From: Hyphomicrobiales bacterium
GTDB taxonomy: Bacteria; Pseudomonadota; Alphaproteobacteria; Rhizobiales; Devosiaceae
Assembly: GCA_027487555.1 (NCBI GenBank)
Contig: JAIYDI010000047.1
Coordinates: 1-64,000 of the forward strand
Direction of reading: 5' to 3'
Length of the DNA: 64,000 nucleotides
Both the position numbers and the translations under genes were made by a program. The notes below the pieces were generated by a model that was not told the DNA's origin, ran no database searches, and saw nothing but the letters and a program-made list of their open reading frames with translations. Positions 40,333-60,704 of this stretch are shown here, piece after piece; the stretch's first letter is position 1, and every line of letters begins with the position of its first letter.

Positions 40333-41336
40333 GATGGCGCCCGCCCGGCCAGGCTCGCGAAGCGCGCCATAACCATTTGCGGCAGGAGCTCGCTCATGCA
40401 GCGGTGATGTCCGAGCGGACAGGTCCGCGCCCGGCATGGCGCGCAGGGCAAACCCAACGAGATGGTCGCGCCTAGCGCGCTAAGCGGCGGCGTCTCGTCC
40501 GGCGCCGTGGGCCCGTAGAGGCCGAGCACCGGCACGCCCGTCGCCGCCGCCACATGCAAGAGGCCGGTATCGTTGCCAACCGCGCCTCGCGCAGCCGCGA
40601 TGAGATCGACGGCGAGGCCGAGACTGGTGCGGCCACCCATGTCGACCGCACCCGGCGCATCGCGGCAGACCGCCCCTGTAACTGCGCGGTCGCGCGGACT
40701 GCCGAGCACAGCCACCCCCAGCCCTTCGTCCAGCAAGAGCCGCGCAAGGCCCGAAAAATGCGCGACCGGCCAGCGCTTCGCCGACCCACCTTCGGCACCC
40801 GGAAACAACGCGACAAAGCAGCCCTCCCGGAGCCCGAAACGCTGGAGGGCCTCGGCCTGCTGCGCCTGATCGACCCGCAGGCGCGGCGCGGCGGCAGCGG
40901 TGACGCCCGCCACATGCTGATAGGAGCGGAATGGCACCCGGCGGCTGCCCGGACCCGTCTCGCGGACGGGGCGATTGACCAGCAGGTGCCGGAGCTCGGT
41001 TCGATAGCCGCGGCGTTCGGGAACCCCCGCGAACCACGGCACGAGAGCCGAGAGGAAACTGTTGGGGAGGATCACCGCCGTCTCGTAGCGTCCCCGCAGC
41101 GTGCGGCCCAGCGCCCAACGCGGCCCGAAATGCGGCGCATGGGGCGAAAAGGGCAAGGGGATGAGCGCGCCGATATCGGGCATCCGCGCCGCGACTTCGA
41201 GCACATGGGGTGGCGCGAGCATATCCACGGTCCGGTCCGGCCGGGCGCGGCTGAGAGCAGAAACCACCGGCTCCGCCATCACCATGTCGCCCACCCAGTT
41301 GGGCCCGACGATCAGGAGCCGCGCGCGCGGAGCCAT
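40329..41336 (-). CDS. waaF: LPS heptosyltransferase (WaaF-like, GT9)
   Basis: A 335-residue GT9 heptosyltransferase. N-terminal LLIVGPNWVGDMVMAEPVVSAL is characteristic of heptosyltransferase II. The C-terminal GNDTGLLHVAAATGVPVLGLYGPT forms the ADP-heptose site, and a cysteine-bearing PCAPCRARTCPLGHHRCM segment near 300 is also family-typical. The start at 41336 lies 25 bases inside the hldD gene. Adds the second heptose after WaaC. Confidence 0.88.
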   Translation of the reverse strand: MAPRARLLIVGPNWVGDMVMAEPVVSALSRARPDRTVDMLAPPHVLEVAARMPDIGALIPLPFSPHAPHFGPRWALGRTLRGRYETAVILPNSFLSALVPWFAGVPERRGYRTELRHLLVNRPVRETGPGSRRVPFRSYQHVAGVTAAAAPRLRVDQAQQAEALQRFGLREGCFVALFPGAEGGSAKRWPVAHFSGLARLLLDEGLGVAVLGSPRDRAVTGAVCRDAPGAVDMGGRTSLGLAVDLIAAARGAVGNDTGLLHVAAATGVPVLGLYGPTAPDETPPLSALGATISLGLPCAPCRARTCPLGHHRCMSELLPQMVMARFASLAGRAPS

Positions 41337-42259
41337 GCCACATACTCGCCGATGCCGGTTTCGAGGTCGCGGAACTGCCAGTCGCAGCCGGCAGCGCGCA
41401 ACCGCGTGAGATCGGCTTCGGTATGGCTCTGGTAGCGGCCATGGAGCGCTTCGGGAAACGGCTGGAACTGCACCTCGCCAGCACCCATTTCGGCGATCAC
41501 CGCCGCGGCGAGATCGAGAAAGCTGCGGCTCACGCCCGTACCGCAATTGTAGACGCCGCGCGCCGCAGCCTCCCAAGCCCAGAGGATCACCTGCACCACG
41601 TCCGACACATGGACGAAATCCCGCCGATGCTGACCAGGCCCGAGGCCACCATAGGCGCCGAACAGCGTCGGCCGGTCTCCCGCGCGGATCTGCTCGACCA
41701 TGCGCAGTGCCACCGACGACATCTTACCCTTGTGCCCCTCGCGCGGGCCATAGACATTGAAGTAACGCAGGCCGACTACCGGCGACGCCTCGGGCCCGAG
41801 CGCCGCGCGGCGCACATGATCGTCAAACAGCTTCTTCGAATAAGCATAGATATTGAGCGGTGCCTCGTTACCTGGCAGCTCGACGCAGGTCTCGGACAGG
41901 CCATAGACAGCCGCAGACGAAGCATAGATCAGCGGCACGCGCTGCCCGAGCGCGAAATCGAGGATATCGCGCGAGGCGCGATAGTTGCGTTCCATCATCA
42001 GTTGGCCGTCACGCTCGGTGGTATCCGTGCAGGCACCCTGGTGGAAGATGGCGTCGATTTTCGGCAGCCGCCCCGTCGCCAGCCGCTCCATGAACGCGCC
42101 GCGATCAAGGTAGTCGGCGATGCGCAGATCAGCGACATTGCGGAACTTGTCGCCATTGCGCAGGCTGTCGACGACGAGAATATCCTCGTACCCGCGGGCG
42201 TTGAGCGCAGCGACGAGGTTGCTGCCCACCATGCCGCATCCGCCTGTCACCACCAGCAC
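41312..42259 (-). CDS. hldD: ADP-L-glycero-D-manno-heptose 6-epimerase
   Basis: Converts ADP-D-glycero-D-manno-heptose to the L-glycero form. It has 315 residues. The Rossmann loop VVTGGCGMVGSN is at the N-terminus, SSAAVYG near 122 holds the catalytic Ser, and the YAYSKK motif near 145 holds Tyr and Lys. The VDSLRNGDKFRN segment near 30 is characteristic of HldD. GTG 42259 was chosen as start (GGGGGA upstream, Rossmann strand begins at once). Divergent from hldE with a 79-base gap. Confidence 0.9.
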   Translation of the reverse strand: MLVVTGGCGMVGSNLVAALNARGYEDILVVDSLRNGDKFRNVADLRIADYLDRGAFMERLATGRLPKIDAIFHQGACTDTTERDGQLMMERNYRASRDILDFALGQRVPLIYASSAAVYGLSETCVELPGNEAPLNIYAYSKKLFDDHVRRAALGPEASPVVGLRYFNVYGPREGHKGKMSSVALRMVEQIRAGDRPTLFGAYGGLGPGQHRRDFVHVSDVVQVILWAWEAAARGVYNCGTGVSRSFLDLAAAVIAEMGAGEVQFQPFPEALHGRYQSHTEADLTRLRAAGCDWQFRDLETGIGEYVAWLRARGS

Positions 42260-42338
42260 GATGGAATCCCCCGCTTCCAGTTCCGAACTTATCGTATAGA
42301 AGACGAGCAAGCCCGGAAGCCAGCCCGATGAATTCTTG

Positions 42339-43769
42339 ATGGACGGTCAGTCCCCGGTCCCGAGGGAGCCGATTGCCGCGCTAGCCGCCCGCCTGCGCCC
42401 TGTACGCGTGCTGGTGGTGGGCGACCTGATGCTCGATCGCTATATCGCCGGCGAGGTCAGCCGCCGCGATCCGGACCATGGCAGCGACATCCTCACCGAA
42501 ACCGGGCGTCACGACTGCCTGGGCGGCGCGGCAAATGTAGCACGCAATGCGGCGGCACTTGGCGCCGAAGCGGCGCTGTGCGGCCTCATTGGTGCTGACC
42601 CGGAGGGCGAGCGCCTCCGCGCATTGCTGCGAGAATCAGGAATTTCGGCGGAAAGTGCCCGCGTCGCACCGGAGCGCCCGACGACGCTGAAGCAGCGCTT
42701 TTCGGCACCCGGACACGCACTGCTCCGGGCGGATCGGGAGACCTCGGCGCCGCTCCCGCCGGATATCGAGGCGGCGCTTCTGGCCCGCTGTGCAGCATCC
42801 ATGGACGAGTTCGACGCGGTCATCCTCTCCGACTATGCCAAGGGCGTGCTCCGGGGCGGGCTCGCAGGGGACATCATCGGCCTGGCCCGCGCCTCCGGCA
42901 TTCCCGTGCTGGTCGACCCCAAGGGGGCGGATTTTGTTCGCTATGCAGGCGCGGCTTACCTCACGCCGAACCAAGCCGAATTCACGCGCGCCGCGGGCGG
43001 CCTGTCACCAACCGAACTCGTCACCCGGCTGGACCTTGATGGCCTCGTCATCACGCGAGCCGAGCACGGCGCCACTCTGTTCGACAGGACGGGGACACGG
43101 GAATTCCCGACAGAGCCCGTTGCGAAGCCTGAAGCGACAGGTGCGGGCGACAGCTTTATCGCCATGCTGGCCGTCGCCTGCGCCTCTGGAATGGGAATAG
43201 ACGATGCGGTGCGGCTTGCAAACCATGCAGGGCGCCTTGCCTGCCTGCGTCCGCGCACGGCGGCGGTGACCAAGGCCGATCTGGCAGAGGACGCAGCCGC
43301 GGCCGAGCGGCCGGTAGACCCGCTCCTCGCACAAGTCGCTCTTTGGAAGGCGGCGGGCCTTCGCGTTGGCTTCACCAATGGCTGTTTCGACTTGCTGCAT
43401 GCCGGGCATGTGCATCTTATCGAACAGGCCCGCGCCCGCTGCGACCGGCTGATCGTCGCTGTGAACACCGATGCGTCGGTGCGTCGCCTCAAGGGGCCCG
43501 TCCGCCCGATCCACCGCCTCGATCACCGCATGCGGGTTCTCGGGGCGCTGCGGAGCGTCGACCTCGTCACCGCCTTCGACGACACCACGCCACTCCGCCT
43601 CATCGAGGCGATCACCCCCGATCTGCTGGTCAAGGGCGCTGACTATACCGTCGAGACCGTCGTCGGCGCGTCGCATGTCCTGGCCCATGGTGGCACGGTA
43701 TTCCTTGCCGAACTGATCGAAGGGCTGAGTACCACGGCCGCCCTGGGCGGCGGTCAGCCAGTGGATTGA
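42339..43769 (+). CDS. hldE: bifunctional heptose kinase/adenylyltransferase HldE
   Basis: Makes ADP-D,D-heptose from heptose 7-phosphate. It has 476 residues. The N-terminal PfkB-type kinase (about 1-325) has VVGDLMLDRYIAGEVSR, LGGAANVARN and the ATGAGDSF active-site motif near 265. The C-terminal cytidylyltransferase-like domain (about 345-476) has FTNGCFDLLHAGHVHLIEQA and LLVKGADY. ATG 42339 is preferred over the adjacent TTG 42336. GmhA and GmhB are not in the window. Confidence 0.93.
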   Translation: MDGQSPVPREPIAALAARLRPVRVLVVGDLMLDRYIAGEVSRRDPDHGSDILTETGRHDCLGGAANVARNAAALGAEAALCGLIGADPEGERLRALLRESGISAESARVAPERPTTLKQRFSAPGHALLRADRETSAPLPPDIEAALLARCAASMDEFDAVILSDYAKGVLRGGLAGDIIGLARASGIPVLVDPKGADFVRYAGAAYLTPNQAEFTRAAGGLSPTELVTRLDLDGLVITRAEHGATLFDRTGTREFPTEPVAKPEATGAGDSFIAMLAVACASGMGIDDAVRLANHAGRLACLRPRTAAVTKADLAEDAAAAERPVDPLLAQVALWKAAGLRVGFTNGCFDLLHAGHVHLIEQARARCDRLIVAVNTDASVRRLKGPVRPIHRLDHRMRVLGALRSVDLVTAFDDTTPLRLIEAITPDLLVKGADYTVETVVGASHVLAHGGTVFLAELIEGLSTTAALGGGQPVD

Positions 43770-46042: not shown

Positions 46043-46280
46043 AGCCATGGTGCGGGCGGCAATCGCCGCCAATTCCACCGTAGGGGCGAACGAGATAAGG
46101 CTCGACGCCCGGCTGAACGACATCCCCGGACTGGGGTCGCTCGATTTTGTCGCCGCCATCAACGACCTCGAGCAACGCAGCGGCCTCACCATCCCCGACA
46201 GCGACGCCGTCGCCTGCCGCACAGTCGCCGATCTCGTCGACCTGTGCACCCGCCTCGCGGCTTCGCTCAATTCTGCCTGA
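46032..46280 (+). CDS. acyl carrier protein-like
   Basis: An 82-residue acidic protein of the acyl carrier kind. The phosphopantetheine site is IPGLGSLDFVAAIND, with Ser at about residue 37, close to the usual DSL. A ribosome site GGGAG lies upstream. It overlaps the acyltransferase gene by 11 bases and converges on the HisD-like gene with a 14-base overlap. It is not the housekeeping AcpP (no fab genes adjoin); it probably supplies a specialised acyl group to the adjoining acyltransferase. Confidence 0.8.
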   Translation: MPIEAMVRAAIAANSTVGANEIRLDARLNDIPGLGSLDFVAAINDLEQRSGLTIPDSDAVACRTVADLVDLCTRLAASLNSA

Positions 46281-47595
46281 GCGCCGCGAGCCGAAGACCC
46301 GAGACCGCGTTGGCATGCGCATCGAAACCCTCATAGGTCGCGAAGCGATGCGTATGCGGCGCCATTTCGTCGAAGCCCGAGCGCGTCATCTGCCCGATGG
46401 TCGAGAATTTCAGGTAATCGCGCACCCCAAGGGCCGAATGGCTCTTGGCCCAGCCCGAGGTCGGCAGCACGCAATTGGGGCCCATCATGTAATTGGCGAT
46501 GGAGCCGGCCGCATATTCGCCAAGCAGGATTTCGCCGGCATTGCGGATTTTCGACAGGTGCTCGAGCGGCGCCTTGGAGAGGATCTGGAGATGCTCGGGG
46601 GCGTAGTCGTTGATGAAGGCATAGGCCTCCTCGCGCGTCTTGGTGAGCACGATGCCGCCATGCGGGCCGCCAAGCACGGTAGAGGAGAACCCGATGCGGA
46701 GTTCGCCCATCTGCGCCCAATAGGTGGGGATAGCGGCGCGCGCTGCCTCGGCCACTTCGCGCGACCAGGTGACGAGGAACGCCGAGGAATCTGGCCCATG
46801 CTCGCTTTCAATGATGAGATCGAGCGCGGCGAGCTGGCCGTTGGATGTCTCGTCGGCAAGGATCAAGCTCTCGCTCGGGCCGGCGGGGAGGCCTGTATCG
46901 ATGCGGTCGGAGAGGAGCCGCTTCGCCGCGACGACGAAGGGGCTGCCGGGCCCGACGATCTTGGCACAGCGCGGGATGGACGCGGTGCCGAAGGCGGCAG
47001 CGGCGACACCAACCGCACCGCCGGCGCGATAGACCTTCTCCACGCCGCCCAGGCGCGCGGCGACGAGCGTCGCGGCGTCGATCCTGCCATCGGGGCCGGG
47101 CGGGGTGAGCAGGATGGCGACCGGCACCTTGGCGACGCTCGCAGGGATGGTGGTCATCAGCGTGACGGAGGGGAACGAGCCCTTGCCGCGCGGCGCGTAG
47201 CAGGCGACGGAATCGATGGGCGTCGCGCGTTCGCCCACGAGCACGCCGGGCCGGATTTCCTTCATCCACATTTCGGGCGGCATCTGCGCCTCGTGAAAGC
47301 GGCGGATATTGTCGGCCGAATAACGCAGGGTTTCGAGCATTTCGGGCTCGAGCTCGGCAAAGGCGGCGTCGAACTCTGCTTCCGTGGCCATCAGGTGCGC
47401 GGGGTCGAGCGGCACCTTATCGATGCTCTCGGCGAGCGCAGCGATGGCCACATCGCCTTCGAGCCGCACCCGCTCGATGATCGGTTTCACCTTGTCGAGG
47501 AAGGGCGCGAGATCCGCCTCCGAGCGGGTGAGCAGCGCCTGCCGCCCGGCCGGCGTCAGCGCCGCGAGCTCGTAGAAGGCGACGGGGTTGGTCAT
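46267..47595 (-). CDS. HisD-family dehydrogenase A (not histidine biosynthesis)
   Basis: A 442-residue histidinol-dehydrogenase-like protein; the family oxidises an alcohol to an acid with NAD and zinc. Family sequence: CYAPRGKGSFPSVTLMT near 132, VGPGSPFVVAAKRLL near 220, DYAPEHLQIL near 320 (the catalytic Glu-His pair) and EGFDAHANAV near the C-terminus. Two positions that bind zinc in HisD appear changed: the Q of QAEHG is E (IIESEHGP), and the D of GDYxxGPNHVLP is N (ANYMMGPNCVLP). Last gene of a TauABC-type operon; no his genes are near, so a catabolic substrate is likely. Confidence 0.82.
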   Translation of the reverse strand: MTNPVAFYELAALTPAGRQALLTRSEADLAPFLDKVKPIIERVRLEGDVAIAALAESIDKVPLDPAHLMATEAEFDAAFAELEPEMLETLRYSADNIRRFHEAQMPPEMWMKEIRPGVLVGERATPIDSVACYAPRGKGSFPSVTLMTTIPASVAKVPVAILLTPPGPDGRIDAATLVAARLGGVEKVYRAGGAVGVAAAAFGTASIPRCAKIVGPGSPFVVAAKRLLSDRIDTGLPAGPSESLILADETSNGQLAALDLIIESEHGPDSSAFLVTWSREVAEAARAAIPTYWAQMGELRIGFSSTVLGGPHGGIVLTKTREEAYAFINDYAPEHLQILSKAPLEHLSKIRNAGEILLGEYAAGSIANYMMGPNCVLPTSGWAKSHSALGVRDYLKFSTIGQMTRSGFDEMAPHTHRFATYEGFDAHANAVSGLRLAALRQN

Positions 47596-47609
47596 CAGTC
47601 AGTCTCCTG

Positions 47610-48398
47610 TCACGCGCCGTCGAGCGCCATGACCTTCAGGGTCTCTTCGCGGATATCGGCAAGGATCTGCCGCTTCAGATCGGAAAACTCCGGGCTCGTC
47701 ACCACGTCAAAATGGCGCGGCCGGCCAAGCGATACCGGCACGATGCGCTTCAACCGCCCCGGACGCGAGGCGAGCACCACGACACGATCGGCGAGGAAGA
47801 TCGCCTCCTCGACATCATGGGTGACGAACAGCACCGTCACCTTGTGCTCGTCCCACACCTTCAGCAACAATTCCTGCATCATGCCGCGCGTCTGCGCGTC
47901 GAGTGCGCCGAAAGGCTCGTCCATCAGCAGCAGCGATGGCTTGTAGACGAGGGCCCGCGCAATGGCGACGCGCTGCCGCATGCCGCCCGAGAGCTGGCGC
48001 GGATAGGCATCCTCGAAGCCCGCGAGCCCGACAGACTGGATGAACTCGCGCACGAGTTCGGTCTTTTCGGGCTTGCTCAGCGCGGTTTTTTCGAGTGCGA
48101 AGCGGATATTGCCTTCGACCGTGAGCCACTCGAACAGGCTATAGCCCTGGAACACGAAGCCACGATCGCGGCCGGGGCCGGCGACAGGCTGCCCGTCGAT
48201 GCGGATATCGCCGAAGGTGGGCTCGGTCAGCCCGCCCACCATGTTGAGCAGAGTGGATTTGCCGCAGCCCGAGGTGCCGACAATCGAGACGAACTCGTTG
48301 GTGCCGATCATGAGATCGATGCGGTCGATGGCGAGGTATTCCTTCGCTCCGGTGCCAAACACCTTGCCCACGGCGTCGATGGAAACTTTCGGGCTCAT
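47610..48398 (-). CDS. ABC transporter ATPase (TauB/SsuB type)
   Basis: A 262-residue ATPase. Walker [13 protein letters not shown] (about 42), signature [15 protein letters not shown] (about 140), Walker B LLLMDEPFGALD and D-loop, and the VTHDVEEAIFLADRVVVL segment typical of the nitrate/taurine class. The start overlaps the permease stop as ATGA. Order in the operon: binding protein, permease, ATPase, dehydrogenase. Confidence 0.9.
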   Translation of the reverse strand: MSPKVSIDAVGKVFGTGAKEYLAIDRIDLMIGTNEFVSIVGTSGCGKSTLLNMVGGLTEPTFGDIRIDGQPVAGPGRDRGFVFQGYSLFEWLTVEGNIRFALEKTALSKPEKTELVREFIQSVGLAGFEDAYPRQLSGGMRQRVAIARALVYKPSLLLMDEPFGALDAQTRGMMQELLLKVWDEHKVTVLFVTHDVEEAIFLADRVVVLASRPGRLKRIVPVSLGRPRHFDVVTSPEFSDLKRQILADIREETLKVMALDGA

Positions 48399-49252
48399 CG
48401 GTCAGCCGCCCAGCGGAACAGCTTTCGCCCGAAATGCTTGAAGAGAAGGTCGGTGACAAGGCCCAATAGCCCGATGAACAGCGTGCCGAAGATGATGGTG
48501 TCGGTGGCAAGGTAGCGCTGCGCATCCATGATGCGGCGGCCAAGGCCGGATTGCGCCGCGACGAGCTCTGCAACCAGCAGATAGGTCCAGGTCCAGCCGA
48601 TGGTGATGCGGAACGTATCCCAGATGCCGGGCAGCGCTGCGGGCAGGATGATCCGCCACAGGATCTCGGCGTTGGAAAAGCCCAGTGTCTGCCCGGCGCG
48701 GATCAGGTTCATGTCGATGTTCTTCACATTATCCATGACCATCAGGGTCATCTGGAAGAACGTGCCGAGGAACAGGATCAGGATCTTCTGCTCGTCGCCG
48801 ATGCCCGCCCAGAGCACTGACAGCGGGATCAGCGCCACCACCGGCATATAGCGCGCGGTGGAAATCAGCGGCTCGAGCGCACCCTCGAACAGGCGGAAAT
48901 TCCCCATCATGATGCCGATGGGCACGGCAACAACGGTGGCCGCGAGCCAGCCGACGACGATGCGATAGGTGCTGATCGCCGCATCCTGGAACAGGATGCC
49001 GGTCGAGACCTGCCGCCAGGCTTCCTCGATGACCGAAAGCGGGCTGGGGAGGAAGAGCGGCTTCACGAGGCCCAGCGCCGTCACGACGCTCCAGGCAAAC
49101 AGCAGCAGCAGCGGCACGACGAAGCCGGCGCTGGTGAAGACGGAGTCTGGAATGGCTTCGCGCAGGCGCATCAACCCGGTGCGGCGCCTCAGCGTGCGGC
49201 GGTCGACGCGGCCCTGTGCGGCGGCTTCGGCTACGGAGGGAGGAACTGTCAT
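48395..49252 (-). CDS. ABC transporter permease (TauC/SsuC type)
   Basis: A 285-residue membrane permease with about six helices. The coupling loop is AGQTLGFSNAEILWRIILPAALPG near 195. A long charged N-terminus (about 40 residues, RVDRRTLRRRTGLMRLRE) precedes the first helix. ATG 49252 is chosen; a longer start at 49291 would reach to within 5 bases of the substrate-binding gene's stop codon. Confidence 0.88.
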   Translation of the reverse strand: MTVPPSVAEAAAQGRVDRRTLRRRTGLMRLREAIPDSVFTSAGFVVPLLLLFAWSVVTALGLVKPLFLPSPLSVIEEAWRQVSTGILFQDAAISTYRIVVGWLAATVVAVPIGIMMGNFRLFEGALEPLISTARYMPVVALIPLSVLWAGIGDEQKILILFLGTFFQMTLMVMDNVKNIDMNLIRAGQTLGFSNAEILWRIILPAALPGIWDTFRITIGWTWTYLLVAELVAAQSGLGRRIMDAQRYLATDTIIFGTLFIGLLGLVTDLLFKHFGRKLFRWAADR

Positions 49253-49295
49253 GGGATAGGGCGCGGGCGACGCAGGCAGCGCCGCCCGCAATTGC

Positions 49296-50252
49296 TCACT
49301 TCAGGCCGTTGAGCGCGGTGAGGTCGAGGATTTCGTCGCCGGTCGGAACGATCTTGATCTCCTCGGGCTTGGCTTCCTGCATCAGGCCGCCGATCTCGCC
49401 CACGGTTGCCTGGAACGGGCCGGCCAATGCCGCATGGTTTTCCGCGAGATTGTAGAGCTGCACGCCGGCAAAGGCCGTCTTGAACTCTTCCATCGGGGAG
49501 CCGACGGCATCGGCGATGATCTTGCCGCCCTCCTCGGGGTTCTCGCGCAGGTAGGTTACCGCCTTGTCCCAGGCCTTGATGATGCCCTGCAATTCCTTTG
49601 TGTGGGCCGCGACATAGTCCGCAGGCGCGGCCAGCACGTCGGAAATCAGGCCGGGCTTTTCGCCGGCCGAGAACAGGATCTTGTACTCCGGCCCTTCCTT
49701 GAGCGCCGCCGAGATATAGGGCTCGTAGGTGACGGCCACATCGACCCGGCCGGCGATCAGCGCGAGGCCAGCGTCCGACGCATTGATCGGTACGGCCTCG
49801 ATATCCTTGAGGCTCATGCCGTTGACCTTGAGCGCGTAGTTGATCAGCAGGTCGCTTGTGGCACCGACCTCGTAGGCGACCTTCTTGCCCTTCAACTCGG
49901 AGATGGAATTCACCGCCTTGTTGGCAAGTACCGCGTCGGCAGTGGTCGAACCATCCATCAGCATGAAGGCCTTGAGGTCGATGCCGTTATTGCGCTGCAG
50001 GATGACGCCGTTGGTGGCGATGGAGGTGACGTTGATGTTCCCCGACGCAAGCGCCACGGCAAGATCGGCATCCCAGCCGAAATTTACGAGCTGAACATCG
50101 ACACCTTCTTCGGCGAAGTAGCCCTGCTTCTCGGCCACCCAGAGCGGCCCGTAGCCAAGCCATGGCTGCAGGCCGATCTTGATCGTTTCGGCCTGTGCCG
50201 GGGCGGCAAGACCGATCCCCAGGGCAAAGACCAGTGCGGTTGCGAATTTCAT
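49296..50252 (-). CDS. ABC transporter substrate-binding protein (TauA/NMT1 type)
   Basis: A 318-residue periplasmic binding protein. A Sec signal ends at about APAQAE-TI (residue 21). The mature N-terminus IKIGLQPWLGYGPLWVAEKQGYFAEEG is typical of the taurine/nitrate/sulfonate class. First gene of the transporter set; it follows the DMFase-like hydrolase gene by 42 bases. Substrate unknown; the adjoining amidase-like gene suggests an amide. Confidence 0.88.
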   Translation of the reverse strand: MKFATALVFALGIGLAAPAQAETIKIGLQPWLGYGPLWVAEKQGYFAEEGVDVQLVNFGWDADLAVALASGNINVTSIATNGVILQRNNGIDLKAFMLMDGSTTADAVLANKAVNSISELKGKKVAYEVGATSDLLINYALKVNGMSLKDIEAVPINASDAGLALIAGRVDVAVTYEPYISAALKEGPEYKILFSAGEKPGLISDVLAAPADYVAAHTKELQGIIKAWDKAVTYLRENPEEGGKIIADAVGSPMEEFKTAFAGVQLYNLAENHAALAGPFQATVGEIGGLMQEAKPEEIKIVPTGDEILDLTALNGLK

Positions 50253-50294
50253 GGGCAGCTCTCCGGTGTGAGGAAATTGTTGGCAGCGATGCAA

Positions 50295-52304
50295 TTAGCC
50301 CGCGGCGGTAAAGTCAAGGCTTTGGAACGCCTGTAGCAGGTTAAGCACCAGCCTGCCGACATCGTTGGTCTCTCCCGGCCCGGGCAAAGCGCCGAGAAAT
50401 GCTACAGAACTTGCCGAAAAGATCACCCCTCCGCCCGGATGGCGCCAGATGCACATGTCGGCGCGCCGTTGGGCCTGCCGCTCCGCGTCGCCACCTTCGA
50501 ACCATTTGCCGGGATCGTCGACATAGCTGTCGGGGAAGCCCGAGGCGGCGGCGACAACGACGATGTCGTTGGGGCTGCCGAGATGAACACTTACCGAATC
50601 CACCTCATAGCCCGCCGCCCCGCCCTGCACTATGCCGGTGTCGCCGAAGCGATCGCCAACGCCATTGAACAGCCAGGCGAACTCGGGCGAGCGACCGGCC
50701 GCGGTCTTCTCGAAAGGCAGGGCCGGGGAAAAGCCCATCAGCGAAATGCCGACGCCGACAAGCCGATATTCGCCGCGGCCCATATCCCTGAGGTATCCCC
50801 CCGGTTCGCCGGTGAGGGCCAGATTCATCTCGGCGAGCGGGCCATCCCAGGTCCGACCCGATTGCGTCGGACCGCGGCGGAGTTCCATCAGGTCGTCGCG
50901 ATACGCGACCGCCGCGGCAAAGCCATTGCCGCCGAGATAGGCGAGCCGCCCGCCGCCCGCGACATAGGCGCGATAGGCGCTTTCCATCTCGACGGACAGA
51001 TATTCCGGGTGGCTGCCGGTTGCGACGGCGCGATAGCGCTTCAGCAGGTCTATGCCGCCCTCGTGCAAATCCCCGTCGGTGAGCACATCGACTTCGAAAC
51101 CCTCGCGGGCACAAAACCGCAGAAAGTGCAAATCGACCGGCAGGTTGTGCGGATCGCCGCAGAGCGGGTAGCGGTAATCGTCGCGGAGCGTCGCCTTGGC
51201 CTTGCGGGTCGAGACCAGCGACACGCCGCTGCCATCGGAATGGTAGTCGTAGAGCGAGCGCAGTTCGTTGGCCCGGGCGAATTCGTGGCCGCGATCCGTG
51301 CCGATCCACTCGTAAAGATGCGGCGGCAGGTACTCATCGGCATAGGCGAGATAGGTGGCGGTCGGGATGATGACGGCGATCTCCGCCGTTTTCGCGCGCG
51401 GCGCGACGAAGAACGGGATTCGCTCTACAGATTCGCCCGCCACAAGTTCCAGCGCGTAGACGCCGCTCGGCGTGCCCTCGGGAATATCGATCTCGTAGCT
51501 TAGGGGCCAGTCGAGCCCAGCCATGTCGGTATCGTGGAAATGCACCGCGTCATAATGCGCTGGCGCAAGGCGCGGATCGAGCGCGGAGCCGTCCCAGCGG
51601 GCGGAGGTGACGGCGAAGGTCGGGTTGCCGTGCAGTGTCAGCCGTAACGGGCCGGAGGTGATGGGACCGGCAGTAAAGCGCGGCGGAAACTCCAGCCCGC
51701 CCTGCCCATCCACACCGACAAGCGAGATATGTCCGATGCGGCAATTGAGCGTCGGCATGGTTTCGTCGGCATCGGAGGCAAAGACCAGCCGCGTCGGCGC
51801 CGGCGCATGGAACGGCGCGGAGAGTTCGAAGGGAAGGAAGGGATCCGCCGCCGTGACCTGCACAGCGCGCCGCGCCCAATCCAGTCCGAGCTTCAGCCAG
51901 CGCCCGGATGGCAGGCGGCCGAGCGGGTACGCGCCCGAGGGCGTGGCAAGGGTCAGTTGGCCATCGACGACGAACAGCGTCGAATTGCCCGCATCGAGGA
52001 GGACGCGGTGACCGGGATTGCGGGTCAGCAGCAACTCGAAGCTGAGCCGCGCGAGGGGGCCGAAAACCTCGTGCCCGGTGATCTCGGCCCAGCTGCCCTG
52101 CTGGAATCGCCGATGGCTGACCGGCGCCAGCGCGCGCACCGCGAGCGCCACTTCGGGCATGCTGTCGCGGTCGAGGCGCCGCACCCGCGCGTTGTCGATA
52201 GTGAGTGGGCTCGAAAGGCTCGCCTGCCTTAGGCCCGGACCGCCCGTCCAGGGCTCGACATAGCCCGCGATCTTGAGGGCGCCATGGTCGACGATCCGCT
52301 TCAT
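50295..52304 (-). CDS. N,N-dimethylformamidase large-subunit-like hydrolase
   Basis: A 669-residue protein resembling the large subunit of dimethylformamidase (DmfA2), which hydrolyses N-alkyl amides using a mononuclear iron bound by two Tyr and one Glu. The N-terminal half is a jelly-roll/lectin-like region. The C-terminal half (from about 300) has IIPTATYLAYADEY, SLYDYHSDGSG and ATGSHPEYLS with candidate Tyr and Glu ligands. No small subunit (DmfA1) gene is adjacent. ATG 52304 has GGAG upstream. First gene of the operon hydrolase-TauABC-HisD-like. Confidence 0.8.
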   Translation of the reverse strand: MKRIVDHGALKIAGYVEPWTGGPGLRQASLSSPLTIDNARVRRLDRDSMPEVALAVRALAPVSHRRFQQGSWAEITGHEVFGPLARLSFELLLTRNPGHRVLLDAGNSTLFVVDGQLTLATPSGAYPLGRLPSGRWLKLGLDWARRAVQVTAADPFLPFELSAPFHAPAPTRLVFASDADETMPTLNCRIGHISLVGVDGQGGLEFPPRFTAGPITSGPLRLTLHGNPTFAVTSARWDGSALDPRLAPAHYDAVHFHDTDMAGLDWPLSYEIDIPEGTPSGVYALELVAGESVERIPFFVAPRAKTAEIAVIIPTATYLAYADEYLPPHLYEWIGTDRGHEFARANELRSLYDYHSDGSGVSLVSTRKAKATLRDDYRYPLCGDPHNLPVDLHFLRFCAREGFEVDVLTDGDLHEGGIDLLKRYRAVATGSHPEYLSVEMESAYRAYVAGGGRLAYLGGNGFAAAVAYRDDLMELRRGPTQSGRTWDGPLAEMNLALTGEPGGYLRDMGRGEYRLVGVGISLMGFSPALPFEKTAAGRSPEFAWLFNGVGDRFGDTGIVQGGAAGYEVDSVSVHLGSPNDIVVVAAASGFPDSYVDDPGKWFEGGDAERQAQRRADMCIWRHPGGGVIFSASSVAFLGALPGPGETNDVGRLVLNLLQAFQSLDFTAAG

Positions 52305-52414
52305 GCCTGTCTCCATGGCTGGGTGGACCCACTATCGCCGCCCGCACCAAGAATGGCCATTCCCAACTTGGCGCCCACACGGCAATAGTGCCTTGGTCGA
52401 ACGCGGGGCAAATC

Positions 52415-53182
52415 ATGGCAGGCACAGGGCTTTTCGATCTTTCGGGGGAAGTTGTGCTCGTCACTGGCGCGAGCCGCGGCATTGGCGCGGCGCTGGCGAA
52501 GGGCCTCGCGGCCGCGGGGGCGGAGATCGTGCTGGCAGCCCGTTCGGAGGCGGCGCTTGCCGATGTTGCTGCTCAGATTCGCGCAGCGGGCGGGAAGGCC
52601 CACGCATATCCGCTCGATGTCGCGACGAGCGCTTCAGTCGATGCGCTGTTCGCCCGGCTTGCCGAAGATGGCATCGCCCCCAGCATACTCGTCAACAATG
52701 CCGGCACCGAAGAGGTCGCCCCGGCGCTCGAAGTGACCGATGCGCTGTGGGACAAGATCGTCGGCACCAATTTGAAGGGCGCCTTCAATGTGGCGCGCGC
52801 CTTCGCCCGAGCACGGGGCGGCGTGCCGGGTGCGATCGTCAATCTCTGCTCACTCGCCTCGGAAGTGGGCATCCCGACGGCAGTGCCCTATACGGCGTCG
52901 AAGAGCGGCCTCGCCGGTATGACGCGCGCGCTGGCGGTGGAATGGGCGACGCTCGGCATCCGGGTCAACGGCATCGGGCCGGGCTATTTCCGCACCGAGA
53001 TGACCGAGGGCTTCTTTGCGGCCGAAGGCTGGCAACAGGCGATGCTGGCGAAGATCCCGCAGCGCCGCTTCGGCGAGCTTGATGACCTGGTTGGGGCGGC
53101 AATCTTCCTCGCAGCGCCGGCTTCCGCCTATGTCACCGGGCAGATCCTCTATGTCGATGGCGGCTATCTCGCGAGCATCTAG
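52415..53182 (+). CDS. short-chain dehydrogenase/reductase
   Basis: A 255-residue classical SDR: VTGASRGIGAALAKGL near 18, VNNAGTEE near 95, Ser in NLCSLAS near 140 and YTASK near 157 with both catalytic residues. Ends with GQILYVDGGYLASI. It is divergent from the DMFase-like gene with a 110-base gap, which suggests a shared regulatory region and a step in the same pathway. Confidence 0.87.
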   Translation: MAGTGLFDLSGEVVLVTGASRGIGAALAKGLAAAGAEIVLAARSEAALADVAAQIRAAGGKAHAYPLDVATSASVDALFARLAEDGIAPSILVNNAGTEEVAPALEVTDALWDKIVGTNLKGAFNVARAFARARGGVPGAIVNLCSLASEVGIPTAVPYTASKSGLAGMTRALAVEWATLGIRVNGIGPGYFRTEMTEGFFAAEGWQQAMLAKIPQRRFGELDDLVGAAIFLAAPASAYVTGQILYVDGGYLASI

Positions 53183-53199: not shown

Positions 53200-53637
53200 T
53201 CAGAGCCGCGCCCGGCTTGAGCGCGGCGTCGCGAGCAACAGCGTCGTCTCGCTGGCGGTAATGCCCGGAACGAGCCGGATGCGCCGCAGCACGGCGTCGA
53301 AATCCGGCAATGAATCCGTCGCCAGTTCCGCGACAAGGTCCCAGCGGCCATTGGTGGTGTGGATCGCCGTCACTTCGGGATAGCCGCCCAGCGTGCGGAT
53401 CACCTTGTCGGCAACATGGCCTTCGATCTCGATCATCATGATGCCGCGCACCGCCTGCGCGAAGGCATCGGCCTTGAGCACGACCGTGTAGCCGACAATC
53501 TCGCCTGAACGCTCAAGCCGCTCAAGACGGGCGCGGACCGTCGCGCGCGACACCCCAAGCTCTGCCCCGATGTCGGAAATGCTGCGCCGCGCATCGCGCC
53601 GAAGCAGCGTGATCAGCTTGCCATCGAGATCGTCCAT
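53200..53637 (-). CDS. Lrp/AsnC-family regulator
   Basis: A 145-residue regulator. The N-terminal HTH is DARRSISDIGAELGVSRATVRARLERLE (about 15-42); the C-terminal RAM domain holds VTAIHTTNGRWDLVAEL near 92. It is divergent from the arginase gene, the standard place for the local regulator of arginine/ornithine catabolism in this class; the effector is probably arginine or ornithine. The 127-base gap holds the divergent promoters. Confidence 0.9.
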   Translation of the reverse strand: MDDLDGKLITLLRRDARRSISDIGAELGVSRATVRARLERLERSGEIVGYTVVLKADAFAQAVRGIMMIEIEGHVADKVIRTLGGYPEVTAIHTTNGRWDLVAELATDSLPDFDAVLRRIRLVPGITASETTLLLATPRSSRARL

Positions 53638-53764
53638 CTGCCACTCCGCTCAGTACGACTGACCATAATGATAAAAGCTGCTGCACGAATTGCCAATAGT
53701 GCCTGTTCGATCCGCCAGGCGTCCGTGGTGGGATTGCCCCCGGATCAGATGACGGGGCAGGCAC

Positions 53765-54685
53765 ATGCGGGTACGGATCGTTGGCGCGCCAGTGGAAGAC
53801 GGCGCCGGACGGCTTGGCTGCGAAATGGGACCGAAGGCGCTCCGCGTCGCAGATCTCGGCGCGACACTGCGTGACCTCGGCCACGAGGTCGAGGACCTTG
53901 GCAATGTGGCGCGCGGCGCCCTGCCCGCCGTCACGCACGCCAACCCGGCGCTCAAAAACCTGCCCGAAGTCGCGGCCTGGACCTCGGCCATATCCGATGC
54001 CGCCTATGCGGCGAGCGACGACGCCATGCCGATCTTTCTGGGCGGCGATCACGCCCTTTCGGCCGGCACCGTCTCGGGGGTGGCGCGCCGCGCCGCCGAA
54101 CTCGGCCGGCCGCTCTTCGTGCTCTGGCTCGACGCCCACCCGGATTTCCACACGCTAGACACCACGACGAGCGGCAATCTGCATGGCGTGCCGCTTGCCT
54201 ATGTCGCAGGTCGCGCCAGCTTCGGCAGCGCCTTCCCGCCGCTCGCCACCGCGATCGACCCGCGCCGCGCCTGTACAATGGGGCTGCGCAGTGTCGACCC
54301 GGCGGAGCGCCGCGCGCTGACCGAAGCCGGCGTATTGGTGCACGACATGCGCGCCATCGACGAGCACGGCATCGCGCCGCTGCTGCGTGATTTCCTGGCC
54401 CGCGTCGTGGCCGAGAACGGCCTGCTGCATGTCAGCTTCGATGTCGATTTCCTCGATCCGGCCATCGCGCCCGCGGTCGGGACCACAGTGCCGGGCGGCG
54501 CCACATTCCGCGAGGCGCATCTGGTGATGGAGATGCTGTCGGACAGCGGACTCGTGACGAGCCTCGACCTCGTCGAACTCAACCCCTTTCTCGATGAGCG
54601 CGGCCGCACCGCCACCCTGCTTGTCGATCTCACAGCGAGCCTGATGGGCCGCCGCATCATGGATCGCCCGACCCAGAGGTACTGA
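53765..54685 (+). CDS. rocF: arginase
   Basis: Hydrolyses L-arginine to ornithine and urea with a binuclear manganese centre. It has 306 residues. All three family signatures are present: GGDHALSAG near 98, WLDAHPDFHT near 123 and SFDVDFLDPAIAPAVGT near 227. It is followed by ornithine cyclodeaminase after 2 bases, so the pathway runs arginine to ornithine to proline. Confidence 0.94.
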   Translation: MRVRIVGAPVEDGAGRLGCEMGPKALRVADLGATLRDLGHEVEDLGNVARGALPAVTHANPALKNLPEVAAWTSAISDAAYAASDDAMPIFLGGDHALSAGTVSGVARRAAELGRPLFVLWLDAHPDFHTLDTTTSGNLHGVPLAYVAGRASFGSAFPPLATAIDPRRACTMGLRSVDPAERRALTEAGVLVHDMRAIDEHGIAPLLRDFLARVVAENGLLHVSFDVDFLDPAIAPAVGTTVPGGATFREAHLVMEMLSDSGLVTSLDLVELNPFLDERGRTATLLVDLTASLMGRRIMDRPTQRY

Positions 54686-54687
54686 AC

Positions 54688-55743
54688 ATGCTTACGCCCT
54701 CGCCACTCGCCATCGTGCCTTTCGTCAGCGTCGACAACATGATGCGGCTCGTGCATGCCACCGGCATCGAGCGGTTCCTCACCGAGCTTGCCGCCTATAT
54801 CGAAGAGGATTTCCGCCGGTGGGAGCTGTTCGACAAGACGCCGCGCATCGCCTCGCACAGCCATGACGGCGTCATCGAGCTGATGCCGACCAGCGACGGC
54901 GCGCTGTACGGCTTCAAATATGTCAACGGCCACCCCAAGAACATGCGGTCCGGGCGGCAGACGGTGACAGCCTTTGGCGTGCTCGCCGATGTCGGCTCGG
55001 GCTACCCGATGCTGCTGACCGAAATGACGCTGCTCACCGCGCTGCGCACCGCCGCCACCTCGGCCTTTGCCGCAAAGCTGCTCGCGCCACCCGGGGCGCA
55101 TACGATGGCCATTATCGGCAATGGCGCGCAGTCCGAATTCCAGGCCATCGCCTTCCGGGCGCTTCTGGGCATTACCAGCCTGCGCCTCTACGACATCGAC
55201 CCCAGGGCGAGCGAAAAGTGCCGAGGAAACCTTGCTGCGCTCGGCTTCGACATCACGGTTGCCGGCAGCGCCGAGGAGGCGGTGGAAGGCGCACAGATCG
55301 TCACGACGGTGACCGCCGACAAGCAGAATGCCACCATACTTTCGAGCAACATGGTCGGCCCCGGCATCCACATCAACGCGGTGGGCGGCGATTGCCCCGG
55401 CAAGACCGAACTCCACCGCGACATCTTGCTGCGCGCTGATATCTTCGTCGAATTCCCGCCCCAGACCCGCATCGAGGGCGAGATCCAGCAGCTCGATGCT
55501 GACCATCCGGTCACCGAACTCTGGCAGGTGCTTACCGGCCACGCCCCGGGCCGAACCGCGCGCGATCAGGTGACGCTGTTCGATTCCGTCGGCTTCGCAG
55601 TCGAAGACTTCTCGGCGCTGCGCTATGTGCGCGACCGGCTCGTCGAAACTGGGCTCTTCACCGAACTCGATCTGCTCGCCGACCCCGACGATCCGCGCGA
55701 TCTCTTCGGCATGCTGCAGCGCTCGGCTGCCAGCGCCGCCTGA
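54688..55743 (+). CDS. ocd: ornithine cyclodeaminase
   Basis: Converts L-ornithine to L-proline and ammonia with NAD. It has 351 residues. The catalytic Lys is in YGFKYVNGHPKN near 75, the NAD site is IIGNGAQSEFQA near 140 and the catalytic Asp in INAVGGDCPGKTEL near 230. Two bases after the arginase stop. The C-terminal extension of about 20 residues is ordinary. Confidence 0.93.
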   Translation: MLTPSPLAIVPFVSVDNMMRLVHATGIERFLTELAAYIEEDFRRWELFDKTPRIASHSHDGVIELMPTSDGALYGFKYVNGHPKNMRSGRQTVTAFGVLADVGSGYPMLLTEMTLLTALRTAATSAFAAKLLAPPGAHTMAIIGNGAQSEFQAIAFRALLGITSLRLYDIDPRASEKCRGNLAALGFDITVAGSAEEAVEGAQIVTTVTADKQNATILSSNMVGPGIHINAVGGDCPGKTELHRDILLRADIFVEFPPQTRIEGEIQQLDADHPVTELWQVLTGHAPGRTARDQVTLFDSVGFAVEDFSALRYVRDRLVETGLFTELDLLADPDDPRDLFGMLQRSAASAA

Positions 55744-58239: not shown

Positions 58240-59376
58240 TCAGATGCGGACAACACCGCGGACGAGCCTGCCCTCGCGCAACAGGTCGAAGCCGCGGTTG
58301 ATATCGGCGAGGGGCATGATCTCGGTCAGCAGCCGGTCGACCGGCAAGAGCCCGCGCTGGAACAGCCGCACGAAGCGCGGAATATCGCGTGCCGGGACGC
58401 AGGAGCCGAGATAGCTGCCGCGCACGGTTTTTTCGTCGGCGACAAGGTTGACGGCCAGCAGCGCGAAGGTGGCGTTGGGCGGCGGCAGGCCGCCAGTGGT
58501 CAATTCGCCACCGCGGCGGATGATCTGGTAGCCGAGGCCGAGCGCGGCGATGGAGCCGGCAAGCTCGATGGCGTGGTCGACGCCGCCATGCGTCAAATCC
58601 TTCACCTGCTGCACCGCATCGGCATCCGTCGCGAGCACGGCGTCGGTGGCCCCGAGTGAGACGGCGATGGCGAGTTTCTCGCGCGAGATATCGATGGCGA
58701 GGATCTGCTCGGCTCCGGCAGCCCTCGCCCCGAGCAGCGCCGCCATGCCGACTCCGCCAAGGCCGATCACCGCGACGCGGTCGGCAGGACGTACATTGGC
58801 GCCGTTGAAGGCCGCGCCGACGCCGGTGAGCACGGCGCAGCCGAACAGGGCGGCATGCTCGAAGGCGAGACTGTCATCGACCTTCACCAGCGAATTGCGG
58901 CTGACCGTGGCGAACTCGGCGAAGCCCGAGACGCCGAGATGGTGGTTGAGCGGATGGCCTTGGTCGTGATGCGTTTCGCTCAGCCGCCGCGCCCCCGAAA
59001 TCAGCGTGCCGGCCCCGTTGGCGGCAGCGCCAGGAATGCAGAGGGCCGGCCGCGCATCCATGCAGCATTCGCACTGCCCGCAACTGGGCACGAAGACGAA
59101 GACGACATGGTCGCCGACCTTGAGGTCATGCACGCCCATGCCGAGTTCCTCGACCACTCCGGCGGCCTCGTGGCCGAGCACCATGGGCAGCGGACGCGGA
59201 CGGTTGCCATCGATGACGGACAGATCGGAATGGCACAGCCCCGCCGCGACGACCCGCACCAGCACCTCGCCCTCGCCTGGCCCGGCGAGATCGACCTCGC
59301 GCAGCTTGAGCGGCAGGCTTTCAGCATACGGTGCGGGCAGCCCCGACTGCTCGAGGACGGCGGCGCGGATCTTCAT
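58240..59376 (-). CDS. zinc-dependent alcohol dehydrogenase
   Basis: A 378-residue medium-chain dehydrogenase. Catalytic zinc residues are in GLCHSDL near 47 and GHEAAG near 68; the structural zinc loop is CGQCECC near 100. The NAD site is VAVIGLGGVGMAALL near 200 with an acidic residue after the strand (AIDIS), which indicates NAD over NADP. It follows the HisD/HpsN-like gene by 20 bases in the same direction. Confidence 0.88.
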   Translation of the reverse strand: MKIRAAVLEQSGLPAPYAESLPLKLREVDLAGPGEGEVLVRVVAAGLCHSDLSVIDGNRPRPLPMVLGHEAAGVVEELGMGVHDLKVGDHVVFVFVPSCGQCECCMDARPALCIPGAAANGAGTLISGARRLSETHHDQGHPLNHHLGVSGFAEFATVSRNSLVKVDDSLAFEHAALFGCAVLTGVGAAFNGANVRPADRVAVIGLGGVGMAALLGARAAGAEQILAIDISREKLAIAVSLGATDAVLATDADAVQQVKDLTHGGVDHAIELAGSIAALGLGYQIIRRGGELTTGGLPPPNATFALLAVNLVADEKTVRGSYLGSCVPARDIPRFVRLFQRGLLPVDRLLTEIMPLADINRGFDLLREGRLVRGVVRI

Positions 59377-59396: not shown

Positions 59397-60704
59397 CTAT
59401 TCGGCCGCGCCGGCATAAGGCACGTTGCGGCGCCCATAGCGACGAACGCGCACATTTGCCTGTTCGGCATGTCCGGCAAAACCCTCGAGCATCGAAAGCC
59501 GCGAGCCATAGGCGCCGATCAGCGCGCTCGCCTCGTCGGTGGTGACGCGCTGGTAGGTGCAGGTCTTGAGGAACTTGCCGACCCAGAGCCCGCCGGTATA
59601 GCGCCCGGCCCGCTTGGTGGGCAGGGTGTGGTTGGTTCCGATCACCTTGTCGCCATAGGCGACATTGGTACGTGGCCCTAGAAAGAGCGCACCGTAATTG
59701 GTCATGTTCTCAAGGAAGTAGTCGGGATCGCGGGTCATCACCTGCACATGCTCGAAGGCGAGGCGATTGGCGACGGCAAGCATTTCGGCATCGTCGGCGC
59801 AGAGGATGACCTCGCCATGATCGGACCAGGACACGCGCGCGATTTCTGCGGTGGGGAGAATAGTGAGCAGCCGCTCGACTTCGGCCATGGTTTCGCGCGC
59901 CAGCTTCTCCGACGTTGTGAGCAGAATGGCGGGCGAGGTGGGGCCATGCTCGGCCTGACCGAGCAGGTCGGTGGCGCAGATTTCCGCGTCGACGCTGTCG
60001 TCGGCTATGACGAGGGTTTCGGTCGGGCCGGCGAAGAGGTCGATGCCGACCCGGCCATAGAGCTGGCGCTTGGCTTCTGCGACGAAGGCATTGCCGGGGC
60101 CGACAAGCATATCGACAGGCGCGATGGTTTCGGTGCCGAGCGCCATGGCGCCAATGGCCTGCACGCCACCCAGCACATAGATCTCGTCAGCGCCGGCCAG
60201 ATGCATGGCAGCAACGATGGCCGGATGCGGTCCGCCGTGGAAGGGCGGCGCGGCGGCGACGATGCGTTTGACGCCGGCTACCTTGGCGGTCAACACGCTC
60301 ATGTGCGCGGAGGCGACCATCGGGTACTTGCCGCCCGGCACATAGCAGCCCACGGCATCGACGGGGATATTGCGGTGCCCAAGCACGACGCCCGGCATGG
60401 TTTCGACTTCGATATCCGTGAGTGCGGCTTTCTGCGCCTCGGCGAAGCGCCGCACATTGGCTTGAGCAAAGCGGATATCATCGAGATCGCGCGCGGACAG
60501 CTTGCCGATCGCGGCCTCGATATCGGCCTCGGACAGTCGGAAATCCGCGGGCTCCCATTTGTCGAACTTCGCCGAAAGCTCGCGGATGGCGGCATCGCCA
60601 CGCGCCTCGATATCGGCGAGGATACCCTCGACGATGAGACGAACCTTGCTGTCGGCCTCGGCACGCTGCGCTGCGCCAAGGGCGGTCTTGAGGTGGAGAG
60701 GCAT
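59397..60704 (-). CDS. HisD-family dehydrogenase B (sulfopropanediol 3-dehydrogenase/HpsN-like)
   Basis: A 435-residue HisD-type enzyme oxidising an alcohol to a carboxylate. In contrast to the paralogue at 46267, its zinc-site residues look intact: [10 protein letters not shown] near 250 and [14 protein letters not shown] near 350, with the Glu-His pair in AFEHVQVM. The [16 protein letters not shown] segment near 120 is typical of the HpsN/catabolic branch. It sits between a zinc alcohol dehydrogenase and a CUT2-type importer. HpsN is suggested by similarity only; I see no HpsO- or sulfonate-specific gene beside it. Confidence 0.83.

What the first reader, a model, noticed from the sequence alone, without database searches (positions are those of the whole stretch)
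46267..53182. HisD-like dehydrogenase + TauABC importer + dimethylformamidase-like hydrolase: an unassigned amide cassette
Seen: one minus-strand run of DMFase-like hydrolase, binding protein, permease, ATPase and HisD-like dehydrogenase, with a divergent SDR. Known: the DmfA2 family hydrolyses N-alkyl amides with mononuclear iron, usually with a small subunit that is absent here; HisD relatives oxidise alcohols to acids. Inferred: import of a small N-substituted amide, hydrolysis, then oxidation of an alcohol fragment by SDR and HisD-like enzymes.
Basis: partly seen in the sequence, partly recalled or inferred. Interest (0 to 1): 0.68.

Follow-up and report, generated by a model that had tools for sequence, protein, structure and literature searches.

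The report
Amide-import cassette linked to histidine breakdown
A soil-bacterial gene set that probably imports an unidentified amide, cuts it with an iron enzyme and oxidises a fragment is real and conserved, and some relatives of it sit beside histidine-breakdown genes, which points to an unstudied route for scavenging nitrogen.

Summary
Window 46267-53182 encodes a HisD-family dehydrogenase, ATPase, permease, binding protein and DMFase-like hydrolase (all minus strand), with a divergent SDR. The hydrolase keeps the DMFase iron ligands (Tyr325, Tyr356, Glu438) and catalytic His436; its model fits DmfA2 over 658 residues. The core is conserved: 41 of 59 short-type hydrolase loci with full flanks carry binding protein, permease, ATPase and HisD nearby, against 0 of 15 long-type loci.

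(1) The dehydrogenase belongs to a separate HisD subfamily in which two zinc ligands are exchanged (Gln to Glu, Asp to Asn); by metal site it is neither histidinol dehydrogenase nor HpsN. (2) This subfamily is linked to histidine utilisation: hut enzymes lie within about 9 kb in 10 of 40 loci, against 0 of 16 canonical HisD loci. In two hydrolase loci, hutU directly precedes the hydrolase gene.

Best reading: import of an amide-linked, probably imidazole-bearing amino alcohol, amide hydrolysis, oxidation towards histidine. The substrate is unproven. No hutH or hutU was found in the window's own genome, and only 2 of 40 HisD loci carry the hydrolase nearby, so the hydrolase looks like an optional front end.

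The parts
46267..47595 (-). HisD-family dehydrogenase of an E/N subfamily (Glu263 and Asn368 where HisD and HpsN have Gln and Asp zinc ligands)
   Evidence: PF00815 431 bits; residue comparison; tree
47610..48398 (-). ABC transporter ATPase, NtrCD/TauB-like
   Evidence: below the Tau equivalog cut-off
48395..49291 (-). ABC transporter permease, TauC/SsuC-like
   Evidence: below the equivalog cut-offs
49296..50294 (-). Periplasmic binding protein, SsuA/NMT1 superfamily; the Met before a signal-peptide-like sequence lies at about 50252 (by eye)
   Evidence: PF09084, PF13379; SsuA_fam 140.9 bits, below cut-off 163.5; start read by eye
50295..52316 (-). DMFase-like, probably mononuclear iron, amidohydrolase; Fe ligands Tyr325, Tyr356, Glu438, catalytic His436, Asn464; relatives start at its second Met (about 52304)
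   Evidence: PF20254, phmmer to 6lvb, alignments, model, superposition
52388..53182 (+). SDR oxidoreductase, divergent from the hydrolase; likely ATG at 52415
   Evidence: PF13561 198 bits; start; an SDR of 41-63 percent identity in 24 of 59 full-flank hydrolase loci, and 73 percent in the same-genus loci L002 and L018

Best explanation
The cassette is an accessory nitrogen- and carbon-scavenging route of the histidine-utilisation (hut) kind. Inferred: the ABC importer brings in a small amide whose amine part is an imidazole amino alcohol or diol of the histidinol type. Inferred from conserved residues: the DMFase-like enzyme uses Fe(III) held by two Tyr and one Glu to hydrolyse the amide. Inferred: the SDR oxidises or epimerises a secondary alcohol, and the E/N-type HisD oxidises the terminal CH2OH to COOH in two NAD-dependent steps, giving histidine or imidazolelactate. 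Where hut genes exist, the product goes to urocanate and glutamate. Shown: gene content, conserved residues, conserved linkage, hut adjacency in relatives. Not shown: the substrate, any activity, any expression.
For: Core linkage 41 of 59 against 0 of 15. In the 11 genomes where the hydrolase lies alone, all 11 carry the E/N HisD elsewhere; 6 of these 11 stretches were fetched and all 6 hold it with SDR and importer. hut enzymes within about 9 kb in 10 of 40 E/N HisD stretches (6 of 20 genera), against 0 of 16 canonical HisD stretches and 0 of 15 long-type DMFase loci (p = 0.024 against the first, 0.002 against both). hutU is followed on the same strand by the hydrolase about 34 bp (L083) and 181 bp (L042) on; HisD lies about 68 bp from hutC in L029 (gaps between tblastn matches). 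L029 and L042 carry HisD of 67 and 58 percent identity to the window's. The two module GntR regulators tested (L012, L102) exceed the HutC equivalog cut-off (271 and 255 against 220). Some modules add a HisC-like transaminase (the one tested, L102, scores 648 against its cut-off of 540) and an FMN alpha-hydroxy-acid oxidase. hutU is present in 24 of 26 hydrolase-bearing genomes searched (the background rate in such genomes was not measured). The S. meliloti hisD2-hisC3 locus falls together with hutUGH and ntrBC in a tolC mutant (PMC2912261, passages), which its authors tie to lower NtrC.
Against: No hutU or hutH was found in the window's own genome (assembly 94 percent complete), and none of its 16 HutC-like matches reaches the cut-off (best 123 of 220), so here any histidine made has no usual hut path to enter. 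Only 3 of 73 short-type hydrolase loci, and none of 13 further module loci, have hut enzymes in view. Only 2 of 40 HisD stretches hold the hydrolase. The module regulators are only 28-43 percent identical to the HutC of the L083 hut operon. Ten of the 16 canonical control stretches come from the lone-hydrolase group, mostly Mesorhizobium, so that control is narrow. The accessory kinase, Zn-alcohol dehydrogenase, GGT and CE4 genes have no firm role in this scheme. The changed zinc ligands could equally mean a non-imidazole substrate.
Confidence: 0.37

Rival explanations
1. HpsNOP-like pathway for a non-imidazole 1,2-diol. SDR and Zn-ADH (like HpsO and HpsP) invert the secondary alcohol, the HisD-like enzyme makes the 2-hydroxy acid, an alpha-hydroxy-acid oxidase and a HisC-like transaminase carry it on; the hydrolase frees the diol-amine from an amide.
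For: The trio SDR PF13561 + Zn-ADH PF00107/PF08240 + HisD family is the one used to define hpsO/hpsP/hpsN neighbourhoods (PMC11382572 passages). Zn-ADH in 23 of 59 and SDR in 24 of 59 full-flank loci; oxidase and transaminase in some; a GhrA-like reductase in L132.
Against: The HpsN sulfonate-binding motif is absent (G-K-G-S-F instead of G-R-Y-A/S-H) and the zinc ligands differ. It does not explain the hut linkage. The Zn-ADH of these modules has no match of 40 percent or more in the window right of 40000, though a different Zn-ADH-like gene (by eye) lies at 58240-59376.
Confidence: 0.22
2. General amide cassette: a small N-alkyl amide, with an alcohol fragment oxidised, unrelated to histidine.
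For: Fe ligands and fold of DMFase; five genomes (three Devosia, one Chelativorans, one Agrobacterium) have hydrolase plus importer without the E/N HisD.
Against: The E/N HisD is present for 53 of 59 hydrolase loci (42 linked, 11 elsewhere in the genome), and that HisD is hut-linked in part of its range.
Confidence: 0.25
3. Only the HisD-like enzyme belongs to histidine catabolism; the hydrolase and importer serve another compound and share no more than regulation.
For: In three stretches HisD follows the hut operon and no SDR or importer was matched (L189, L193, L196). Hydrolase and HisD separate in some genomes.
Against: Five-gene linkage in 41 of 59 loci; hutU directly precedes the hydrolase in L083 and L042.
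Confidence: 0.1
4. Pantothenate degradation: hydrolase = the unidentified pantothenase, HisD-like = pantoate oxidation.
For: A family member is named as hydrolysing N-acetyl-beta-phenylalanine, a beta-amino-acid amide (8huy). The protein behind pantothenase is called unknown in PMC10393543 (passages).
Against: Pantoate is a 1,3-diol acid, a poor analogue of histidinol (recalled chemistry); hut linkage unexplained. Genes for beta-alanine or valine breakdown were not searched for.
Confidence: 0.03

Closest known systems
DMFase DmfA1A2 of Paracoccus (6lvb; PMC7686228)
   Same: PF20254, full-length superposition (Z 47.9, 658 residues, 2.5 A, 26 percent identity), Fe ligands and catalytic His
   Different: About 100 residues shorter than the 775-residue large subunit, no small subunit found, sits with an importer and HisD; substrate unknown
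N-acetyl-(R)-beta-phenylalanine acylase (8huy)
   Same: Same fold (Z 46.2, 645 residues, 28 percent identity)
   Different: Chain about 100 residues longer; its neighbourhood, and whether it has a partner chain, were not checked
Histidinol dehydrogenase (HisD)
   Same: PF00815; catalytic Glu and His, zinc His residues and C-terminal Glu conserved
   Different: Gln to Glu and Asp to Asn at two zinc ligands; the own genome has a separate canonical HisD
HpsN, (R)-DHPS dehydrogenase (8v35, 8wwe; PMC11382572)
   Same: HisD family used in catabolism; SDR and Zn-ADH as neighbours in many loci
   Different: Lacks the His126 motif and Lys353; zinc ligands differ; hut-linked in part of its range
S. meliloti pSymA hisD2-hisC3 locus (SMa0387-SMa0402 region)
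   Same: Same HisD subfamily (58 percent), SDR, Zn-ADH, HutC-type regulator, kinase, hydroxy-acid oxidase (on strain ml56)
   Different: Polyamine-type importer and no hydrolase in the stretch; its transporter is called of unknown function in PMC2912261

Membership tests
DMFase / DMFA2_C (PF20254) | Pfam gathering score | tested here: met
   220.8 bits against 27
DMFase / DMFA2_C (PF20254) | Fe ligands Tyr399, Tyr440, Glu521 and catalytic His519 | tested here: met
   Tyr325, Tyr356, Glu438, His436 aligned, invariant in the 53 sequences aligned
DMFase / DMFA2_C (PF20254) | Ig-like + pentraxin + ThuA-like domains | tested here: met
   658 of 673 residues superpose on 6lvb at 2.5 A
DMFase DmfA1A2 proper | Small subunit, required for activity | tested here: inconclusive
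   None found in own genome, but the probe, from L091, matched the known small subunit only at E 0.05
DMFase DmfA1A2 proper | Hydrolyses DMF | not testable with these tools
   needs assay
Histidinol dehydrogenase | PF00815 / TIGR00069 cut-offs | tested here: met
   431 bits against 27; 417.3 against 243.8
Histidinol dehydrogenase | Catalytic Glu326, His327 (EcHisD) | tested here: met
   Glu334, His335
Histidinol dehydrogenase | Zinc ligands Gln, His, Asp, His | tested here: not met
   Glu263 and Asn368 replace Gln and Asp; His266, His427 kept
HpsN (DHPS dehydrogenase) | Motif G-R-Y-A/S-H ending in His126; Lys353 | tested here: not met
   G-K-G-S-F; Tyr369 at the Lys353 place (mapped through)
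TauABC taurine importer | NCBIfam equivalog cut-offs | tested here: not met
   TauA 46.3 of 304, TauC 164.7 of 342, TauB 230.5 of 357
hut-linked module | hut enzymes adjacent | tested here: not met
   none in the window, no hutU or hutH in own genome; met in 10 of 40 subfamily HisD stretches
Two-tyrosine iron amidohydrolase | Iron bound in the protein | not testable with these tools
   needs metal analysis

The most novel reading that the evidence does not exclude
An undescribed front end of histidine utilisation: alphaproteobacteria import N-acylated histidinol-type imidazole compounds, cleave them with a two-Tyr, one-Glu Fe(III) amidohydrolase, and run a rewired HisD (two zinc ligands exchanged) as a catabolic enzyme that makes histidine for the hut pathway.
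Probability: 0.25. Interest if true: 0.72.

Novelty: new variant of a known kind. Interest (0 to 1): 0.56.

Why it matters
If right, it gives a function to a HisD subfamily with matches in 66 of 397 genomes of this order (signature checked in 40 of the 67 matches) that the annotated records seen label as histidine biosynthesis (for example). It offers a nitrogen-scavenging role for the S. meliloti hisD2-hisC3 locus, whose transporter is described as of unknown function. It would widen the substrate range of an iron amidohydrolase family for which two enzymes turned up with solved structures. It names a concrete substrate class to test.

Tried and rejected
Rejected or left weak. Sulfonate (DHPS) pathway: HpsN motif absent. 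Plain taurine import: cut-offs missed. Pantothenate: considered, little support. Arginase, ornithine cyclodeaminase and Lrp next door as part of the system: they fall in no gene cluster shared by four or more of the 89 loci mapped, and the same-genus loci L002 and L018 have a CE4 hydrolase beside the SDR instead, so I treat them as neighbours only. Ten paper searches listed no paper that I recognised as describing this cassette; I saw listings and the passages or sections named in the report, and most subscription papers are not held. PMC5127829 and PMC5596199 held none of the locus names sought. PMC12542648 (passages) lists SMa0391 and hisD2 in tables of a PHB regulator study; not used. Unexplained: the role of the APH-fold kinase, Zn-ADH, GGT plus FAD oxidase and CE4 genes in variant loci; a cluster of sugar-acid-type genes beside the hydrolase in L019.

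Full report
What is there. The six genes described exist at the coordinates given. The five minus-strand genes run HisD-like, ATPase, permease, binding protein, hydrolase with almost no space between them; the SDR starts on the other strand about 100 bp from the hydrolase. The own genome has one PF20254 match and three PF00815 matches: a canonical HisD elsewhere, the one in the finding, and a third 12 kb away in the same window.

The hydrolase. It matches PF20254 and, by phmmer, two solved relatives: DMFase and N-acetyl-(R)-beta-phenylalanine acylase. The DMFase paper (PMC7686228, parts 1 and 2 of 3 of the text) gives the iron ligands Tyr399, Tyr440, Glu521 and the essential His519. In the phmmer alignment these fall on Tyr325, Tyr356, Glu438 and His436, which are invariant in the 53 sequences I aligned (a chosen part of those held), while Asn464 (Asn547) is at least 90 percent conserved. 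The AlphaFold model (pLDDT 94) superposes over 658 residues on 6lvb (Z 47.9, 2.5 A) and 645 on 8huy (Z 46.2, 2.7 A). Side-chain distances were not measured. No small subunit was found in the own genome, but the probe was weak. The hydrolase is patchy: full-length matches in 2 of 61 close genomes searched, own one included, and in 1 of 385 across the class at E 1e-100, the own genome.

Conservation. A plasmid search found 75 records, 7 with at least 80 percent coverage; all 7 loci hold HisD, ATPase, permease and binding protein, though in L017 the hydrolase is split into two frames. The genome scan kept the best 80 of 102 confirmed loci. Of 73 loci with the short hydrolase type, 59 have full flanks; 42 of these carry the subfamily HisD nearby, 41 with the whole importer; 11 have neither HisD nor binding protein nearby; 6 have the importer but no HisD. 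Near-identical loci were not merged. Of 15 long-type loci none matches any of the 14 neighbour genes sought. All 11 genomes of the lone-hydrolase group carry the E/N HisD elsewhere. I fetched 6 of these 11 stretches: all 6 show it with SDR and importer, 5 also with Zn-ADH and a GntR regulator, 4 with the kinase. Of the 6 loci without HisD, 5 genomes were searched and gave only a canonical-type HisD; L039 was not searched.

Accessory genes. Many loci add a Zn-alcohol dehydrogenase, a GntR-UTRA or LuxR-type regulator, and a 430-residue protein without Pfam or NCBIfam match whose model (pLDDT 85) resembles APH-type small-molecule kinases such as methylthioribose and homoserine kinase (best E 1e-5, TM-score by query length 0.3-0.45). 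Some add an FMN hydroxy-acid oxidase, a HisC-like transaminase, GGT with a DadA-like FAD enzyme, or a CE4 hydrolase.

A separate HisD subfamily. Catalytic Glu and His are kept (one His differs in 53), but the zinc ligand Gln is Glu in 53 of 53 and the ligand Asp is Asn in 52 of 52 (one gap) subfamily members; both changes are in 19 of 19 members against 0 of 11 other HisD-family proteins (four of the 19 were also in the 53) and in 40 of 40 further stretches against 0 of 16 canonical ones. The members were picked by similarity to the window protein, and some genomes recur between the sets. Ligand identities come from PMC11382572 (passages) mapped through; E. coli numbers for the ligands are recalled. 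The HpsN motif is absent. The subfamily, including a Monoglobus protein at 43 percent identity that lies next to an IGPD (HisB) domain gene, is one group in the tree of 44 rows (100/99).

Link to histidine utilisation. In L083 the genes hutF, hutC, hutI, hutG and hutU (all over equivalog cut-offs), with hutH detected by similarity, lie upstream of the hydrolase, hutU about 34 bp before it. L042 has hutU 181 bp before it. L029 has HisD 68 bp from hutC, with hutF, hutI, hutH and hutG beyond (gaps between tblastn matches). To test this on HisD, I searched 397 genomes of the order: 66 have a match at E 1e-125, 67 matches in all. I fetched 40 of the 67, spread over 20 genera, leaving out the own one; six stretches are shorter than 17 kb. 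Ten of 40 (6 of 20 genera) have hut enzymes in the stretch, against 0 of 16 canonical HisD stretches and 0 of 15 long-type DMFase loci. A further 13 module loci (6 from the lone-hydrolase genomes, 7 plasmid records) show none. Fisher p is 0.024 against canonical HisD and 0.002 against both controls; with one 9-kb hut locus placed at random in 4.5 Mb, about 0.25 of 40 would be expected. Rows are related, so these p-values are only a guide, and the canonical control comes mostly from one group of genomes. Module regulators from L012 and L102 pass the HutC cut-off. Of 26 hydrolase-bearing genomes searched, 24 have hutU.

Against this reading. No hutU or hutH was found in the window's own genome, and its best HutC-like match scores 123 of 220; the Devosia genomes of L018 and L054 also gave no hutU, and those of L019 and L020 only lower-scoring matches (about 700 bits against 940-984 for the best match of the other 22). 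Only 2 of 40 HisD stretches hold the hydrolase, and only 3 of 73 short-type hydrolase loci hold hut enzymes. So the amide step is optional and the substrate may differ among variants. I therefore hold the imidazole reading at 0.37, and the broader claim that this is an amide import-hydrolysis-oxidation cassette at about 0.7.

Literature. In S. meliloti the related locus includes hisC3 and hisD2 with a transporter called of unknown function; it drops with ntrBC and hut genes in a tolC mutant (PMC2912261, passages). The importer's binding-protein mRNA SMa0392 is controlled by the AbcR small RNAs (PMC8844928, passages). That histidinol can serve as a growth substrate for Arthrobacter histidinolovorans is recalled, not looked up.

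Noticed in passing
window 59397-60680 (-), with 58240-59376 (-) and 60734-63390 (-): A second non-canonical HisD homologue, closest to HpsN in the PDB (392 bits) but with Met at the sulfonate-binding His place; it sits with a Zn-alcohol dehydrogenase-like gene and a sugar-type ABC permease and ATPase (these three named by eye).
   Followed up: partly
window 53200-55743: Lrp/AsnC-type regulator (-), arginase and ornithine cyclodeaminase over their equivalog cut-offs (+), directly beside the SDR; in no gene cluster shared by four or more mapped loci.
   Followed up: partly
L012 14945-16234 and 20 other loci: A kinase-like protein family of about 430 residues; its L012 member has no Pfam or NCBIfam match and the L052 model has an APH-type fold.
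   Followed up: partly
L135 7995-11476: In a Monoglobus record, an E/N-type HisD lies beside an IGPD (HisB) domain gene, a HAD hydrolase and a fumarase C-terminal domain gene; it is the only HisD-family match in that 518-kb record.
   Followed up: partly
L011, L014, L015, L061, L066: Variant cassettes with gamma-glutamyltransferase and a DadA-like FAD oxidoreductase before HisD, suggesting gamma-glutamyl amides in those strains.
   Followed up: no
L013 2005-8682: In Ensifer adhaerens the cassette lies beside a glutamate mutase / methylaspartate pathway gene run.
   Followed up: no
window 41312-43769: Genes that look by eye like heptose epimerase (-) and bifunctional heptose kinase (+), so LPS-type genes lie to the left of the cassette.
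   Followed up: no
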